Shown: positions 4,300 through 18,757 of the stretch, piece after piece
How positions within the stretch are numbered: the first letter of the stretch is position 1
How the letters are laid out: each line of letters begins with the position of its first letter
Source of the DNA: Proteus penneri
Lineage (GTDB): Bacteria; Pseudomonadota; Gammaproteobacteria; Enterobacterales; Enterobacteriaceae
Reading direction: 5' to 3'
DNA: 64,000 nucleotides
NCBI RefSeq assembly: GCF_003144535.1
Contig: NZ_PHFJ01000012.1
Coordinates: 62,001 to 126,000, forward strand
Notes under the pieces: model-generated
Seen by the model: only the letters and a program-made list of their open reading frames with translations
Database searches by the model: none
Told to the model about the DNA's origin: nothing
Made by a program: the position numbers and the translations under genes

Positions 4300-5325
4300 A
4301 TGAATGATGCATTAATAATAAAATACTCAATAGGTGTTAGCATCGCTTTAGCCTGTTTGGTTGGCTTTATCATCGTATCTCTTTTTCATGATAAAAAGAA
4401 AAAACGCCACAGAAATATTATTGTTCATATCAGCCAAGCTATTTTTCTTTGTAGTTTAGTGATTATCTTAAGCCAATATTGTGAAATGGCTGTGGTTGAT
4501 TTTAATCTCCATTTTATCTCTTTTAGGATGATTAATTTCTTTACCTATATTGGTATTGCATTAATTTTAATGAGAAAATTTTTCTTACTGATTAATCGGC
4601 TAGAAAAAGCTCAAATTAAAAAAGGCAGTGATCCTACTTCTGCTCGTATTATTTCTCGCATATTCAAAATCACTCTATTTGTTATTATCATTTTATTGTT
4701 CGGTGAGCATTTTGGCATGAGCTTATCCGGCTTAATGACATTTGGAGGGTTAGGTGGCATTGCCATTGGCATGGCAAGTAAAGATGTATTAAGTAATCTT
4801 TTCTCTGGTGTCATGCTCTATTTCGATCGTCCTTTTAATATTGGTGATTGGGTACGCTCACCTGATCGTAATATTGAAGGCACTGTAGTCGAAATTGGTT
4901 GGCGTATTACCAAAATCATTACTTTTGATCATCGACCGCTTTATATTCCCAACTCTATTTTTTCATCTATTAGTGTAGAAAATCCGGGGCGAATGACTAA
5001 TCGACGTATTGAAACTGAACTCGGTTTACGTTACGAAGACTCTGATAAAATTGGTGTAATTGTTGAAGATATCCGCACCATGCTAATGCAAAATGACAAA
5101 ATTGATACGCAACAAACCTTGTTAGTCTATTTTAATCAATTCGCAGACTCTTCACTCAATATCATGGTGTATTGTTTTACCAAAACAACCGTATGGGCAC
5201 AGTGGCTTGAAGCTCAACAAGAAGTCTATTTAAAGATGATTGAGATTGTGCATAAACATGGTGCTGACTTTGCCTTTCCGTCTCAAACAATTTATATCGA
5301 AAAATCGTCTTCTATCCCACAATAA
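4300..5325 (+). CDS. ynaI: Small-conductance mechanosensitive channel, YnaI type
   Basis: This 341-residue MscS-superfamily channel releases osmolytes upon membrane tension. About five hydrophobic segments precede the pore-lining helix ([22 protein letters not shown] in two parts, near residues 149-171). The beta-domain follows with [10 protein letters not shown] and [10 protein letters not shown]. Length and sequence closely match E. coli YnaI (343 residues) as I recall it, including [18 protein letters not shown]. The AAGGAG ribosome site lies about 10 bases before the ATG at 4300. A perfect 15-bp hairpin follows the gene. Confidence 0.88.
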
Positions 5326-5328
5326 TAG

Positions 5329-5366
5329 AAATGGATAAGTTTAGCCTCTGATAAACTTATCCATTT
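5329..5366 (+). terminator. Terminator after ynaI
   Basis: A perfect 15-bp inverted repeat (AAATGGATAAGTTTA and its complement) with an 8-base loop starts three bases after the ynaI stop codon. It probably works as a terminator, although no long T-run follows. Confidence 0.7.
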
Positions 5367-5502
5367 AACAATCACCAATAACGGTAAAATATGCATTTAT
5401 TATGCATAAAATAATCAACCTTATTGCTTTAATTTATTTCAATCATATTCACAACCAAGTATATTGATCGCCAATTCTTCTATTGATACAAATGCGAGTA
5501 TA

Positions 5503-7665
5503 ATGAAAAAAATGAAGTTGGCGTGTCACCCTACTCTTTCACACTATTTTTATTCTGAACGTCCGATTGTTGATATTGTTGATGCAAATTTAACGCAAAT
5601 ATCAGTAGTAGTGTTGTCATTGTCAGATATTGAGTCTGGCCAATTAGATCGCATTCATCAAACAGGGTTTCAACTTCCCGTATTTATTGCAGTTAATATT
5701 AATGATGCAATCAATGCTGAATTGTTTAATCAAGTTTCAGGAATTGTGATTACGGATAAAAGTGCACATCAAAAAAATAGTATGTTAATTAATAAAGCGG
5801 CACAGCAATATGAAGAGAGTCTAACGACACCATTTTTTTCACGCTTAGTGAATTATGTTGCCGAAAAGAATGTCGCTTTTGATTGCCCCGGTCACCAAGG
5901 CGGAGAGTTTTTCCGTCGTCATCCTACTGGTGAACAGTTTTATCAATATTTTGGTGAGAATCTATTTCGATCTGATCTCTGTAATGCTGATGTAGAAATG
6001 GGCGATTTACTTATTCATGAAGGTGCACCTTACGATGCACAAGCCTATGCAGCACAAGTGTTTAATGCAGATAAAACCTATTTTGTTTTAAATGGCACAT
6101 CCTCCTCTAATAAAGTTGCCTTAAATGCTTTATTGGCACCAAATGATTTAGTGCTATTTGATAGAAACAACCATAAATCCAATCATCATGGTGCACTAAT
6201 TCAAGCAGGAGCAACACCTGTCTATTTAGAAACAGCTCGTAATCCCTTTGGCTTTATTGGTGGTATTGATGCTCATTGCTTTGAAGAACACTATTTACGC
6301 CAACAAATTGCAGAAATTGCGCCAGAACGTCAATTCGATAAACGCCCTTTCCGTTTAGCTGTTATTCAACTAGGCACTTATGACGGTACAATTTATAACG
6401 CGAGGCAAGTTGTCGATAAAATTGGTCACCTTTGTGATTATATTTTATTTGATTCTGCATGGGTGGGTTATGAACAATTCATTCCAATGATGAAACAGTG
6501 TTCACCTTTGTTACTAACGCTTAATGAAAACGATCCTGGTATTCTCGTTACTCAATCTGTTCATAAACAATTAGCGGGATTTTCACAAACCTCACAGATA
6601 CATAAAAAAGATGCCCATCTTAAAGGGCAATCTCGTTATGTTAATCATAAACGTATGAATAATGCTTTTATGATGCATGCATCCACCAGCCCATTTTATC
6701 CCCTTTTTGCCGCTCTTGATGTCAATGCAAAAATGCACTCAGGCAAAAGTGGTGAAGCGATGTGGATGAGTTGCGTAAAGCAAGGCATTGAAGCCCGTAA
6801 ATCATTACTAAAGCAGTGCCAGTTTATTAAGCCATTTATTCCTGAAGTGGTTGATGGAGTTGCTTGGCAAGACCACGACACAGATGAAATCGCCCACGAT
6901 CAGCGTTTTTTTAATTTTATTCCTAATGATAATTGGCACTCATTTGAAGGTTACACAACCAATCAATACTTTGTTGATCCTTGCAAATTAATGCTTACAA
7001 CGCCGGGTATCGATCCTCATACAGGGGAATATGGATCTTTTGGTGTACCAGCCTCTATTTTGGCAAATTATCTACGTGAGCACGGCGTTATCCCTGAAAA
7101 AAGCGATCTCAATTCAATCTTATTTTTGCTGACTCCCGCAGAACATCAAGCAAAGTTTGATCGCTTAATCTCTTTGATTGTTCAATTTGAAAAACACTTA
7201 GTTGAAGATGTGCCATTAGAACAAATCTTGCCTTCTGTGTGTCGTCGCTATCCATCTCGTTATCAGGGGTATACATTACGACAACTCTGTCAGGAAATGC
7301 ATGATATTTGTGTCAGATACAATATCAAATTACTGCAAAAACAGATGTTTAGAAAGAGTCACTTTCCTAAACGAGCATTAAGTCCGCAACAAGCTAATAT
7401 TGAGTTTGTTCGTGGTAATGTTGAATTTTTACCTTTAAATAAATTATCAGGACGCATTGCTGCTGAAGGTGCTTTACCTTATCCGCCAGGTGTTTTATGT
7501 GCTGTACCCGGTGAAATTTGGGGAGGTGCTGTTTTACGTTATTTTCAGGCACTTGAAGCCTCGATTAATCAGCTTCCAGGCTTTTCAACTGAACTTCAAG
7601 GGGTCTATATTTATGATGAAGAAGATGGCAGTAAGCAAATTTATGCTTATGTTATAAAAGAATAA
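5503..7665 (+). CDS. speF: Ornithine decarboxylase (PLP-dependent)
   Basis: The enzyme decarboxylates ornithine to putrescine. The 720-residue product has the prokaryotic layout: an N-terminal wing domain (about 1-105), a fold-I PLP domain with DCPGHQGGEFFRRHP, and SVHK around residues 352-355, where Lys355 should form the PLP aldimine. The C-terminal domain carries AAEGALPYPPGVLC. Similarity to E. coli SpeF is slightly greater than to SpeC in the segments I can recall. I chose ATG 5503 (MKKMKLA) because it aligns with the family N-terminus; an in-frame TTG at 5464 would add 13 residues. No potE antiporter gene adjoins, unlike the inducible speF-potE operon, so the SpeF/SpeC assignment is uncertain. 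Confidence 0.93.
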   Translation: MKKMKLACHPTLSHYFYSERPIVDIVDANLTQISVVVLSLSDIESGQLDRIHQTGFQLPVFIAVNINDAINAELFNQVSGIVITDKSAHQKNSMLINKAAQQYEESLTTPFFSRLVNYVAEKNVAFDCPGHQGGEFFRRHPTGEQFYQYFGENLFRSDLCNADVEMGDLLIHEGAPYDAQAYAAQVFNADKTYFVLNGTSSSNKVALNALLAPNDLVLFDRNNHKSNHHGALIQAGATPVYLETARNPFGFIGGIDAHCFEEHYLRQQIAEIAPERQFDKRPFRLAVIQLGTYDGTIYNARQVVDKIGHLCDYILFDSAWVGYEQFIPMMKQCSPLLLTLNENDPGILVTQSVHKQLAGFSQTSQIHKKDAHLKGQSRYVNHKRMNNAFMMHASTSPFYPLFAALDVNAKMHSGKSGEAMWMSCVKQGIEARKSLLKQCQFIKPFIPEVVDGVAWQDHDTDEIAHDQRFFNFIPNDNWHSFEGYTTNQYFVDPCKLMLTTPGIDPHTGEYGSFGVPASILANYLREHGVIPEKSDLNSILFLLTPAEHQAKFDRLISLIVQFEKHLVEDVPLEQILPSVCRRYPSRYQGYTLRQLCQEMHDICVRYNIKLLQKQMFRKSHFPKRALSPQQANIEFVRGNVEFLPLNKLSGRIAAEGALPYPPGVLCAVPGEIWGGAVLRYFQALEASINQLPGFSTELQGVYIYDEEDGSKQIYAYVIKE

Positions 7666-14226: not shown

Positions 14227-14718
14227 ATGATTGAATGGATTAGTGCTCAACCTGCACTTTTCTGGCTTTGTCTTGGTGGCTTGCTGTTAATTACAGAAAT
14301 GTTAGGAACAGCGGGATACCTTTTATGGTCAGGAATGGCGGCTCTGTGTGTATCGTTGATCACATGGATATTGCCTATTAGCTGGCCTATTCAAGGTATT
14401 TTATTTGCGATATTAACGGTAATTAGTGCTGTACTTTGGCACCTTTGGCTTAAACGCAGAAAACTATCAAAAGAAGCTGAAAACTTAAATCAGAAAACGC
14501 ATCAACTGATTGGTATTCATGCGGTTTTATTATCAGATACTGAAAATGGTTTTAGTCGCGTAAAATTAGCTGATGGCAGTTGGCGTGTTTATTCAAACAC
14601 GCCATTACTTGCCGGCGATAAGGTAACAGTAACCGCAATTGATGGTATTACCCTACAAGTGACTGCGCTTAAACAGACTATTTCTGGTGATGACAACACC
14701 CTGACAAATGATCGATGA
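14227..14718 (+). CDS. ybbJ: NfeD-like inner-membrane protein YbbJ
   Basis: This is a short NfeD1b-type protein of 163 residues. Hydrophobic helices at the N-terminus (about 8-28, 31-48, 53-75) precede a soluble OB-fold domain (about 95-150, with [10 protein letters not shown] and [11 protein letters not shown]). NfeD proteins pair with SPFH partners, here QmcA immediately upstream. Its last 41 bp overlap, on the opposite strand, the sequence that encodes the metal-binding end of CueR. Confidence 0.93.
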
Positions 14719-15081
14719 TAGGGCAATCGGCTCCTTCATCTCCGGGACACTCGCTGGCTAACAAAAGTAATCGTTGGCGAATGTCATTGAGCTCATTAAT
14801 TGTTTTCTCAATTTCAGCCACTTTTTTAAGGTGGCTTCTTTCACATCAGAACTATGGCGAGAAGGATTTCTTAATAGCATTAACAACGCGCGACACTCTT
14901 CTAAGTTAAAACCAACCTCTCTCGCTTGTCGCAATAATGTTAACTCTTCAATATGTTGAGCTTGATAATAACGATAGCCGTTTTCACCTCTTCCCGGTGG
15001 GGTTATCAAGTCTTTTTCTTCATAAAACCGAATAGCTTTAGCCGTTAATCCTGTTTTACTGGCGATTTCACTAATATTCAA
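14678..15081 (-). pseudogene. cueR: Copper regulator CueR, split by a frameshift
   Basis: CueR is a MerR-family Cu(I) sensor that activates copA. The first frame (15081 down to 14758) encodes a MerR helix-turn-helix starting [13 protein letters not shown] from a TTG codon, and ends after 107 residues in an aberrant tail. The rest of CueR continues in the other frame: [11 protein letters not shown], then [12 protein letters not shown] with both copper-binding cysteines, then LSGCCHHQK, ending at 14678. Joining the frames gives 134 residues, the normal CueR size. The break is at complement 14821-14829, reading TTA AAA AAG, where one A is missing from a run. This is also a canonical -1 slippery heptamer (A AAA AAG). 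It may be a mutation, a sequencing error or recoding. Confidence 0.85.
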
Positions 15082-15090
15082 AATTCCCCC

Positions 15091-15121
15091 TTGACCTTCC
15101 CCTTGCGGAAAGGTTTAGCCT
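15091..15121 (+). promoter_or_regulatory. CueR-type copA promoter with 19-bp spacer
   Basis: TTGACC at 15091-15096 and TAGCCT at 15116-15121 are the -35 and -10 elements. They are separated by 19 bp holding the dyad CCTTCCCC-TTGC-GGAAAGG. This is nearly identical to E. coli PcopA, where CueR untwists an overlong spacer when Cu(I) binds. The promoter is intact although both the regulator and the target gene are damaged. It now reads into the truncated copA and the autotransporter gene. Confidence 0.88.
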
Positions 15122-15214: not shown

Positions 15215-15844
15215 ATGGCAAAAACTACGCTACTCGCATTACAAGGGCTTTCATGCTCCCACTGTGTTAACAGTGTAAAAAAAGCACTTGATGCTCGCAA
15301 TGATATAGAACAGTCATATGTGACTATTCAATACGCTAAAATTGACAGTGATGCAACTGCTGAAAGTTTAATCAAAACAATTGAAGACGCAGGTTATGAA
15401 GCTAAAATTGCAACACAACCTGATATAAAATTAAGCCTAAGTGGCCTTAACTGCATGAAGTGTGTCGGTAAAACCGAAAAAGCATTATTAGCCATTGAAG
15501 GTGTTGTCGCCGTTAATGTAACAAAAGAATCAGCTGAAATTTTTGGTGACGCGGCAGCGGATGCTTTAATTGCAGCGATTACTGCTGAAGGTTTTCAAGC
15601 AAACTTGGCACCAACTGACAACATAATTCATCTAACACTATCTGGTTTAAATTGTGGTCATTGTGTCGGCTCAGTCAAAAAAGCACTTGAAGCGACAACA
15701 GGCGTTGATAGTGCTGAAGTTGAATTAACACACGCAAAAGTAACGGGTTCTGCAACCGCTGAAACCTTAATTACCGCTGTTACAGAGGCTGGTTACAAGG
15801 AATTAAACACAGTATATAAAGGAGTTTTAAATGAAGGATATTAA
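15215..15844 (+). pseudogene. copA: Truncated copA: three metal-binding domains only
   Basis: The 209-residue product begins exactly as a CopA copper-exporting P1B ATPase. It contains three heavy-metal-associated domains with metal motifs GLSCSHC (about residues 11-17), GLNCMKC (about 77-83) and GLNCGHC (about 144-150). Homology stops after EAGYK near base 15799, and a tail ELNTVYKGVLNEGY follows. The entire membrane and ATPase part (over 600 residues in the family, including CPC, DKTGT and the actuator domain) is absent from the window. The product cannot export copper but could bind it, like the CopA(Z) chaperone of E. coli. The stop codon overlaps the next gene by 14 bp. A CueR-type promoter lies upstream. 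Confidence 0.88.
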
Positions 15845-17261
15845 AAGAAATACAATTACTATTTTATTATTTTCAATAATATATTCACAAGGGTCAATTG
15901 CTAATAATTACACTACAAATTCACCTTCAGAAATAACTGGAGATAATAACTCTGAACCTAGTATTATAAAATCAAATAATAAAATAGCCATTCCACAAAA
16001 AATGCTAAGAAACAAAGACACTGATGATTTTATTAAATATATTGAGAAGGGGGTTGAACATCAAGAAGAAAATATGATCCGTAAAGTCATTTCTAATAGA
16101 TATGTTTCATTTGATATTGATAAAAATAATAATCTTACACTCTATCTAACTGAAGAAATAACAAATCGTATAGACAACCATTTAAAATTGACACATCCTG
16201 GATATAATGCAGCCTTCTCTAATTTTTATTCACATATAATAGATCACCAAGATGAGGAGATAAAAAAATCTATTATAAAACACTTATCAAGCATATCTGA
16301 AAAAAATCAATTAGTATTAGATAATAAGATTACAGAAGCTATAAAAAACAACAATACAAATCAATTATATATTAAAGTAAAAAAGAATGACATGCTTTTA
16401 TCTGAATCACCTCTATTAAATGAAAAAATAGATAAAATCCATTTAACTCCAGAAGAAAGAATTATTTATGATAAATATTTAAAAAATGAAATTGATAACA
16501 CCAACCTTATAACCCTAGGTAGTTATATCATGAATAATAATGTCGAAATAAAAACAAATGAAATAATTGACGCCTTAGAATCAGGTAAAGAAAACATAGA
16601 AAATAACACACATAGCATTGAGGAAAATCAATCATCCATCTCCATCAACAAATCAAATATTGTAGAAAACACATTAAAAGCAGACCAAGCATTAGGTGAA
16701 AATATTATCCAAGATTTAGCAATAGAAGAAAATAAAAAATTAATAAATTCAAACAGTGACGGAATAAAAAGGAATAAAATAGACATTAGTGATAATAATG
16801 AAAAAATCAAAACTAATACAGATGAAATAGAAAAGAACAAACATCATATTAGTCATTTAGAATTTGAATATCTAGAAAATCTAAATATAAAAGAATTTGG
16901 TGAAAAAAATATTAAAGATCACTTTGGTAAATTATATATAGAAAATTCAATTGCTAGAGATGATATAAATAAACTTGATAGCAAATTTAAACACTTTAAA
17001 CATGAAACTAATAATCGCTTTTATAAAGTTGAAAAACGTGCCAATCAAGGTATTGCATCTGTTGCAGCAATGAGTAATTTGCCTTTTACTGACACAGCAA
17101 CATTCAGCACAGCTATTGGTATTGGTAATTATCGTAATGCCACCGCCCTTGCTTGGGGGATGCAATATCGTATCAATGAAAATATTAAAGTAAGAGCCTC
17201 TACTGCGTGGAATGACTCAAATAATTTTGTTTCAGCTGGGGGGATTGGGATCAGCTGGTAA
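15831..17261 (+). CDS. Trimeric autotransporter adhesin (YadA anchor)
   Basis: This is a 476-residue predicted surface adhesin. A signal peptide covers about residues 1-25 (ending QGSIA). An unrecognised Asn/Lys/Ile-rich domain follows (about 26-235). A long heptad-like coiled coil spans about 240-400, with recurring I-x-x-N spacing such as IEENQSSISINKSNI. A YadA-type beta-barrel anchor covers about 402-476, containing ASVAAMSNLPF and ending in Trp. The ATG has a strong AAAGGAG site at 15818-15824. Codon use is visibly more AT-rich than in copA until the anchor, suggesting transfer. The gene sits where the copA ATPase part should be and can be transcribed from PcopA. P. mirabilis has known adhesins of this class (AipA, TaaP), but I cannot say which, if either, this matches. 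Confidence 0.85.
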   Translation: MKDIKRNTITILLFSIIYSQGSIANNYTTNSPSEITGDNNSEPSIIKSNNKIAIPQKMLRNKDTDDFIKYIEKGVEHQEENMIRKVISNRYVSFDIDKNNNLTLYLTEEITNRIDNHLKLTHPGYNAAFSNFYSHIIDHQDEEIKKSIIKHLSSISEKNQLVLDNKITEAIKNNNTNQLYIKVKKNDMLLSESPLLNEKIDKIHLTPEERIIYDKYLKNEIDNTNLITLGSYIMNNNVEIKTNEIIDALESGKENIENNTHSIEENQSSISINKSNIVENTLKADQALGENIIQDLAIEENKKLINSNSDGIKRNKIDISDNNEKIKTNTDEIEKNKHHISHLEFEYLENLNIKEFGEKNIKDHFGKLYIENSIARDDINKLDSKFKHFKHETNNRFYKVEKRANQGIASVAAMSNLPFTDTATFSTAIGIGNYRNATALAWGMQYRINENIKVRASTAWNDSNNFVSAGGIGISW

Positions 17262-17280
17262 TATTAACGCAATAAAGTAA

Positions 17281-17320
17281 ACAAAGTGAAAGCTAAGTAA
17301 ATACTTAGTTTTCACTGTTT
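17281..17320 (+). terminator. Terminator after the autotransporter gene
   Basis: AGTGAAAGCTAAGTA and TACTTAGTTTTCACT pair across a two-base loop with one mismatch, followed by GTTTC. It begins about 20 bp after the stop codon and separates the autotransporter from ybaP. Confidence 0.75.
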
Positions 17321-17380
17321 CATTACATTAAAAATCCGTTATGCTGAGCTTAGTGATCAACACTTAAAGGAGCATATCAA

Positions 17381-18190
17381 ATGGCGGGTATTTTTCAGAA
17401 ACTTAAAGAATGGATCAATATAAAACAAGCTTCTCATTATCCTTACCCTGCTGTTGATATTACACTACCTAATAATATCTCTTTACACCTTGTGGGCAGT
17501 ATCCATATGGGCGTGCCCACAATGTCACCACTTTCTAATGTGCTACTCAACGAAATAAAAAATGCAAATGCTATTATTGTTGAAGCCGATATTTCCACAG
17601 ACGTACAACCTTTTGATCAAGCATCTCTTTTTAGAAAGTCGCTAGAAACACGCTTAAATAACTCTCTTTTTTCTCAAGTCACATGTCACTGTGAAGATCT
17701 CGCTCTCTCACTTTATCAACTTGAGAATAAACCACTTTGGCAAATTGCATTGATTTTACAATCTACCCAAGCAATGCAACTTGGATTACAACCGCAATAC
17801 GGTATTGATTACCAGGTCATTCAATATGCTAATGAGCACAAAAAAAACATTATAGAACTTGAAGGTATTGAGGATCAGGTCGCATTATTATTGAGTTTCC
17901 CTGATGATGGTCAGCAATTACTCGAAGATACACTAAAAAATTGGCACGATAATGCACGTACATTGCAAATCATGATCAATTGGTGGTTAAATTATAATGG
18001 TCAAGAGAAACAACCGCCTTTACCGAATACCTTTAGTAAAGCTGTATTTGATATTTTAATGGAAAGCCGTAACCAAAAATGGGTAAGCATATTATCAAAA
18101 TTACCGGCTGGACGTTATGTGGTAACTGTAGGAGCTCTTCATTTATTTGGTGAAGAGAATCTGATTGATTTACTAACACATCAATCATAA
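17381..18190 (+). CDS. ybaP: TraB/GumN family protein YbaP
   Basis: This 269-residue protein of the TraB/GumN (Tiki-like) family closely resembles E. coli YbaP. It shares ITLPNNISLHLVGSIHMG near residue 27, with the conserved GSIHMG putative metal motif. It also has VEADIST, IELEGIEDQ and the C-terminal VVTVGALHLFGEENL that holds a second conserved His. Family members are proposed metal-dependent proteases, but activity is unproven here. No signal peptide is visible. In E. coli it also lies between copA and ybaK, which confirms that the copA region kept its neighbours. Confidence 0.93.
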   Translation: MAGIFQKLKEWINIKQASHYPYPAVDITLPNNISLHLVGSIHMGVPTMSPLSNVLLNEIKNANAIIVEADISTDVQPFDQASLFRKSLETRLNNSLFSQVTCHCEDLALSLYQLENKPLWQIALILQSTQAMQLGLQPQYGIDYQVIQYANEHKKNIIELEGIEDQVALLLSFPDDGQQLLEDTLKNWHDNARTLQIMINWWLNYNGQEKQPPLPNTFSKAVFDILMESRNQKWVSILSKLPAGRYVVTVGALHLFGEENLIDLLTHQS

Positions 18191-18213
18191 AAACATTATG
18201 ATTAGGAATAACT

Positions 18214-18693
18214 ATGACTCCCGCTGTCAATTTACTGGAAAAACAAAAAATTAAATTTACTCTTCATCCTTATGAACATGATGCGAATGTGCATAATTTT
18301 GGTGATGAAGCCGTTGAAAAATTAGGTTTAGATAATCGCCAAGTATTTAAAACACTGTTAGTTGCTTTAAATGGTGATGCTAAAAATCTTGCTGTTGCAG
18401 TAACACCCGTTTCTGGTCAGTTAGATTTAAAACTGGTTGCTAAGTGCTTTAAAGCCAAAAAAGCTGATATGGCAGATCCACAAATTGCACAAAAGGTCAC
18501 GGGTTATTTAGTGGGTGGAATAAGCCCATTAGGTCAGAAAAAACGCCTACCAACAGTGATTGATGAACAAGCACTTGAATTTGACACTATCTTCGTTTCT
18601 GGTGGTAAACGAGGCTTAGATATTGAGTTATCTGCAAAAGATTTAGGTGTTGTGTTAAGTGCACAATTTGCACTTATTCGTAAAGAGTCATAA
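18214..18693 (+). CDS. ybaK: Cys-tRNA(Pro)/Cys-tRNA(Cys) deacylase YbaK
   Basis: YbaK hydrolyses Cys-tRNA(Pro) mischarged by ProRS and thereby limits mistranslation; it acts in trans with ProRS. The 159-residue length equals E. coli YbaK. Visible family features are VFKTLLVAL with the conserved Lys near residue 46, and the [21 protein letters not shown] loop split around residues 91-111. It starts 23 bp after ybaP, so the two are probably co-transcribed. A bidirectional terminator follows. Confidence 0.96.
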
Positions 18694-18757
18694 TTATGAA
18701 TGATTTTTTATTTTAAGGCTTATCCTCAAAATAAGAAATTAACGTGATTAAGGCCAA

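What the first reader, a model, noticed from the sequence alone, without database searches (positions are those of the whole stretch)
15215..17261. copA reduced to three metal-binding domains, ATPase part replaced by an adhesin gene
Seen: CopA homology is perfect in layout through three HMA domains, then stops abruptly after EAGYK (near 15799). A trimeric autotransporter gene follows with its own strong ribosome site, overlapping the copA remnant by 14 bp. ybaP follows, as it does near copA in E. coli. So the transmembrane and catalytic portions were lost by replacement rather than by deletion only. The surviving 209-residue protein is CopZ/CopA(Z)-like and could still bind Cu(I). The cell must export copper otherwise or be copper-sensitive.
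Basis: partly seen in the sequence, partly recalled or inferred. Interest (0 to 1): 0.78.

Follow-up and report, generated by a model that had tools for sequence, protein, structure and literature searches.

The report
Deletion truncates Proteus copper pump gene
In this Proteus genome a deletion cut off most of the main copper-exporting pump gene and left its metal-binding front end joined just ahead of a surface-adhesin gene that is already its neighbour in related species; it is a gene loss, not a replacement by a foreign gene.

Summary
In detail: 15215-15844 encodes three HMA domains of CopA, CopA homology then stops (last aligned base 15794), and a YadA-type adhesin gene (15831-17261) follows with a 14-bp overlap. 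"Replacement" is wrong. In Proteus relatives the order is cueR / copA / YadA-anchor gene / ybaP (18 of 20 loci; two stretches end too early). Window bases from 15799 align without a break to the stretch just upstream of that gene in L042. So about 2.72 kb was deleted in place: 2.36 kb of copA, its terminator and most of the spacer before the adhesin.

cueR has a frameshift that removes its Cu-binding cysteines. The assembly's only E1-E2 ATPases look like ZntA and KdpB. A second probable Cu-ATPase, in 10 of 20 Proteus genomes, is absent here; CusA is over its cut-off in 0 of 20. CueO is intact. The cell probably tolerates copper poorly. The remnant may bind Cu(I) but has no pump to serve; the adhesin now lies behind the copA promoter, whose activator is broken. 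Isolate's or species' trait is undecided: one genome per species was held.

The parts
14684..15081 (-). cueR, broken: a one-base frameshift in a run of A after about codon 87; the frame from the start ends after 107 aa (14758-15081), the C-terminal part (14684-14848) lies in another frame
   Evidence: 1 of 21 aligned sequences has it
15094..15114 (.). CueR operator-like palindrome of the copA promoter, intact
   Evidence: the only zero-mismatch match in the genome to the pattern used; nearly the same in the 20 comparison loci
15215..15793 (+). first 193 codons of copA, three HMA domains with CxxC motifs intact
15795..15798 (.). deletion junction (exact point uncertain within about 4 bases); about 2720 bp present in relative G001 is missing here
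15799..15844 (+). former adhesin leader now read as the last residues of the fused 209-aa ORF, with the adhesin's ribosome site
   Evidence: (88% to G001 over 43 bases)
15831..17261 (+). trimeric autotransporter-type gene (YadA anchor), neighbour of copA in relatives, 476 aa as in G001
17381..18190 (+). ybaP (TraB/PrgY/GumN family), normal next gene

Best explanation
An in-place deletion of about 2.72 kb removed the 3' four fifths of copA (fourth HMA domain, membrane and catalytic parts), the terminator behind it and most of the spacer before the next gene, a native YadA-type adhesin. Shown: the two flanks are joined directly, no other CopA-type ATPase was found in the assembly, and cueR is frameshifted. 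Inferred: the deletion is recent; the copper-efflux arm of the Cue system does not work, so the cell relies on CueO and other means and should be copper-sensitive; the 209-aa protein is a soluble remnant with Cu(I) sites but no pump to hand copper to; the adhesin is now read mainly from the copA promoter at its uninduced level, with translation coupled to the remnant.
For: Break at 15794 against relatives and continuous alignment 15799-18742 to L042. Order copA-adhesin-ybaP in 18 of 20 loci. Two PF00122 matches in the genome, ZntA-like and KdpB-like; HMA domains only in the ZntA-like gene and the remnant. Second probable Cu-ATPase in 10 of 20 genomes, absent here, and the secA flank lacks it. 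CusA/CzcA model over cut-off in 0 of 20 genomes; the own four RND permeases score best as AcrB (below that model's cut-off), MdtC, MdtB and a general multidrug type. cueR frameshift in 1 of 21 sequences; no close CueR paralogue. Terminator-like hairpin after copA in 15 of 20 loci, none at the window junction.
Against: One draft assembly; reads not seen. The remnant shows little decay: no stop, 2 N and 1 S unique changes among 17 sequences; dN/dS to five relatives 0.086-0.18, four of five above the two relative pairs compared (0.095, 0.104), so slightly relaxed at most. This fits a recent deletion but also a maintained short protein. The cueR change is in a homopolymer and could be a sequencing error, though nine other long genes met in this genome have one open frame. 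The adhesin's lost promoter-like site is no better than chance, and the window keeps promoter-like sites inside the remnant (15381-15408) and at the adhesin start (15841-15870), 5 found on both strands against 2.3 in shuffles, which could drive the adhesin without the copA promoter.
Confidence: 0.9

Rival explanations
1. The adhesin gene was inserted or horizontally acquired and displaced the ATPase part of copA.
For: The passenger part of this adhesin matches G001 (76-84% in 250-base bins) far better than G006, the closest relative on the left flank (44-65%), so adhesin alleles move or diverge fast.
Against: A YadA-anchor gene sits in the same slot in relatives with intact copA; 15799-18742 is collinear with L042 with two gaps.
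Confidence: 0.04
2. Assembly chimera: copA front end and adhesin come from two places or two strains.
For: Draft of 26 contigs; reads not available.
Against: The two sides are the two flanks expected in order and orientation at one locus, and no E1-E2 domain of CopA type lies elsewhere in the assembly (completeness 100, contamination 0.26).
Confidence: 0.04
3. The remnant is a maintained, domesticated soluble Cu(I) buffer (CopZ-like), and the deletion was adaptive, with the adhesin captured by the copper promoter.
For: All three CxxC motifs intact, frame closed shortly after the junction, promoter operator intact; CopZ model NF047957 148 bits against a cut-off of 85, a sum over three domains.
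Against: cueR is broken, so the promoter should not be inducible (C112 and C120 needed for copper binding, passages of PMC5329002); too few unique changes to tell maintenance from youth.
Confidence: 0.08

Closest known systems
Proteus copA locus (cueR / copA / YadA-anchor gene / ybaP) of relatives, e.g. L042 (G001, contig length equal to P. alimentorum 08MAS0041) and L003 (P. mirabilis H110)
   Same: gene order, operator, first 193 codons, adhesin slot, ybaP
   Different: copA is full length (about 980 aa) and cueR unbroken there
CopA(Z) of E. coli, a short metallochaperone made from copA by programmed frameshifting (Meydan 2017; seen only as cited in passages of PMC6747150)
   Same: soluble product of the copA N-terminal metal-binding part
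   Different: E. coli also makes the pump from the same gene; CopA(Z) comes from the first metal-binding domain, this has three and arises by DNA deletion
CopZ metallochaperone family (NF047957)
   Same: HMA domains with CxxC
   Different: three domains, and no partner ATPase found in the genome
Trimeric autotransporter PMI2122 of P. mirabilis (passages of PMC8395112; its name AipA is recalled)
   Same: YadA-type anchor class
   Different: whether this gene is its orthologue was not tested; the sequence was not at hand

Membership tests
CopA P1B-type Cu(I) ATPase | E1-E2 ATPase and membrane domains | tested here: not met
   absent from the ORF; the genome's two PF00122 matches lie elsewhere and look like ZntA and KdpB
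CopA P1B-type Cu(I) ATPase | N-terminal HMA domains with CxxC | tested here: met
   three
CopZ metallochaperone | HMA with CxxC, score over a curated cut-off | tested here: inconclusive
   NF047957 148.1 bits against 85, but summed over three domains; two other CopZ models fall just short (93.7 of 95, 88.3 of 91)
CopZ metallochaperone | delivers Cu(I) to a partner ATPase or regulator | not testable with these tools
   delivery needs biochemistry; no Cu-ATPase was found to receive it and CueR is truncated
Trimeric autotransporter adhesin | C-terminal YadA anchor | tested here: met
   PF03895 3.6e-11
Trimeric autotransporter adhesin | secreted, trimeric, adhesive | not testable with these tools
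   needs expression
CueR regulator | complete dimerisation helix and two Cu-binding cysteines in one frame | tested here: not met
   frame ends at 107 aa after an out-of-frame tail of about 20 residues

The most novel reading that the evidence does not exclude
A Proteus lineage has given up all Cu(I)-exporting ATPases and the copper sensor, keeps a three-domain soluble copper-binding leader protein, and has by the same deletion placed a surface adhesin under the former copper-efflux promoter, with translation coupled to that leader.
Probability: 0.12. Interest if true: 0.55.

Novelty: new variant of a known kind. Interest (0 to 1): 0.36.

Why it matters
The copA front end is in 20 of 20 Proteus genomes examined and 17 of the 19 relatives have copA in one frame, so a genome without a recognisable Cu(I) ATPase and with a broken cueR is a natural test of how far such a bacterium depends on copper export. 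It also shows how one deletion can put a surface gene behind a stress promoter. If it is one isolate's loss, it is an ordinary pseudogene event.

Tried and rejected
Replacement by an acquired adhesin: rejected on synteny. An intact copA elsewhere, a second Cu-ATPase, or CusA as substitute: none found. A CueR paralogue that could work the promoter: none close; the two matches other than cueR's own two pieces are 33% and 26% identical. A direct repeat at the deletion ends: none seen by eye, but at 86-90% identity to most relatives a microhomology of a few bases cannot be judged. Decay of the remnant as a clock: too few unique changes; that count used 17 of 21 sequences, four being dropped for identity under 82% or unequal length. 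Other copies of the junction in viral contigs: 0. Papers, open-licence library only: 0 papers hold Proteus, copA and trimeric autotransporter, 0 hold Proteus, copper-exporting P-type ATPase and comparative genom-; 16 hold Proteus, copA, cueR and copper, of which I read passages of PMC3852070 only and did not open the P. mirabilis SCDR1 genome paper PMC5701452; of 20 papers, 12 were listed and I saw titles and abstract starts only. So no report of this locus was seen, but most of these papers were not read. Naming the species of the window: not possible; its own records may be left out of the named collection.

Full report
Observation. The window holds a 209-aa ORF at 15215-15844 and a 476-aa ORF at 15831-17261 that overlaps it by 14 bp, then ybaP at 17381-18190. 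Pfam finds three HMA stretches in the first, a YadA anchor at the end of the second and the TraB/PrgY/gumN family in the third. The description is therefore correct. One refinement, read from the sequence and not scanned: CopA of P. mirabilis has a fourth CxxC segment before the membrane part (984 aa from ATG), so the cut is after the third of four.

What happened. The window's own genome (3,771,888 bases, 26 contigs) and 19 other Proteus genomes were searched with the 627-base remnant. All 20 have it; in 17 of the 19 relatives the match runs from base 1 to 580 and stops, in the two others (G008, G010) to 541 and 537. In G001 the last 43 bases of the query match again (88%) about 2.7 kb further on. 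The loci of the 19 relatives and one P. mirabilis record (L003) were fetched and compared. In coordinates of L042 (G001) turned to gene orientation, window 15794 corresponds to 2095 and 15799 to 4816, and from there to window 18742 the two run together at 86% with two gaps. copA of L042 ends at 4458 and its adhesin starts at 4848. The window therefore lacks about 2720 bp: 2363 bp of copA and 357 bp of the spacer, leaving 32 bp before the adhesin ATG. The exact point is uncertain by about 4 bases.

The adhesin is native. A YadA-anchor motif lies between the end of copA and ybaP in 18 of 20 comparison loci; in G005 the fetched stretch ends inside an ORF with a similar start, and in G010 the contig ends. 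The passenger part is highly variable: against G006, the closest on the left flank (93%), it is 44-65% identical in the 250-base bins from 15799 to about 17050, against 76-84% for G001. The replacement reading is rejected; a plain deletion explains the junction.

Full-length copA. Of 19 relatives, 17 have copA in one frame; G017 and G015 each carry a one-base indel. In G017 genes of the AcrB and MdtB type also appear broken, so its indel may be an assembly fault.

Copper export in this genome. PF00122 gives two matches, a 783-aa ORF with an HMA domain that I read as ZntA and one that I read as KdpB. HMA domains occur only in that ZntA-like gene and, three times, in the remnant. A second ATPase of 840 aa with two CxxC segments and a MerR-type gene beside it, next to secA in P. 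mirabilis (a Cu-ATPase by my reading, not by a family scan), is present at 86-100% identity in 10 of 20 genomes, with short pieces in G012 and G017; it is absent here, and in the window's genome the flanks of that module lie about 100-140 bases apart. The CusA/CzcA model (TIGR00914) is over its cut-off in 0 of 20 genomes. The four own RND permeases score best as AcrB (1945 bits, under that model's 2150 but over two subfamily cut-offs), MdtC, MdtB and a general multidrug type. CueO is intact, 526 aa, 890 bits against a cut-off of 525.

cueR. Among 21 aligned sequences the window alone has a one-base frameshift in a run of A, and its frame ends after 107 aa. It keeps about 87 true residues and loses most of the dimerisation helix and the region of the cysteines C112 and C120, described as essential for copper binding in passages of PMC5329002. 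A sequencing error cannot be excluded; nine other long genes of this genome met here have one open frame. The operator-like palindrome upstream of copA (15094-15114) is intact and is the only zero-mismatch match in the genome. With up to two mismatches there are 11 places against 7 for the reversed control pattern, so the two-mismatch sites are mostly chance; one of them lies about 40 bases before a 149-aa protein with a CGCC motif that has no NCBIfam match.

Rewiring of the adhesin. In 15 of 20 loci a terminator-like hairpin lies within 130 bases after copA; in L042 it folds at -13.3 kcal/mol, z -3.66. None is found at the window junction (fold z 0.58). In L042 a promoter-like TTGAAA-17-TATATT ends 46 bases before the adhesin ATG and is part of the missing stretch, but such sites are no commoner there than in shuffles, 3 against 3.6 (positions converted). 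So transcription from the copA promoter can now run into the adhesin, and the overlap suggests coupled translation. Against sole control by that promoter, the window has promoter-like sites on the + strand at 15381-15408 and 15841-15870. With CueR broken the copA promoter should stay near its basal level. All of this paragraph's function is inference.

State of the remnant. Among 17 sequences compared, unique changes in the 193 codons are 2 N and 1 S for the window; the relatives have 0-10 N and 0-6 S. dN/dS to five relatives is 0.086-0.18, with two relative pairs at 0.095 and 0.104; the adhesin against G001 is 0.22 and ybaP against G001 0.12. All three CxxC motifs are kept. This fits a recent deletion; it neither proves nor excludes function. 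In E. coli, loss of copA brings inhibition above 0.5 mM copper where the wild type holds to over 2.5 mM; one cytosolic Cu(I)-storage protein at high level offset this in part and another gave no protection (PMC6747150, abstract and passages), so at most a weak buffering role is to be expected.

The species of the window is not known to me; the genus is inferred from these matches.

Noticed in passing
L074:4302-7340 (G008) and 9 other genomes: A second probable Cu-ATPase of 840 aa with a MerR-type gene beside secA, in 10 of 20 Proteus genomes, with short leftover pieces in G012 and G017: a module apparently lost more than once.
   Followed up: partly
L045 (G015) and L043 (G017): copA split by a one-base indel in two more Proteus genomes; in G017 other genes look broken too, so it may be assembly quality.
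   Followed up: partly
slot between copA and ybaP, L030-L047: The YadA-type gene has a conserved anchor and a highly variable passenger, and in several genomes (for example L044, L038) no long ORF covers it whole, suggesting frequent disruption.
   Followed up: partly
L031 turned to gene orientation 4639-7621 (G005) and L041:6180-7831 (G011): Extra ORFs in the same slot: two large ORFs (437 and 553 aa) before the adhesin in G005, and ORFs between adhesin and ybaP in G011 that look like an insertion element by my reading.
   Followed up: no
L066:1012-1461 (own genome, contig C1): A 149-aa secreted-looking protein with a CGCC motif lies about 40 bases behind a two-mismatch CueR-like palindrome; possibly copper-related, but such sites are near chance level.
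   Followed up: partly
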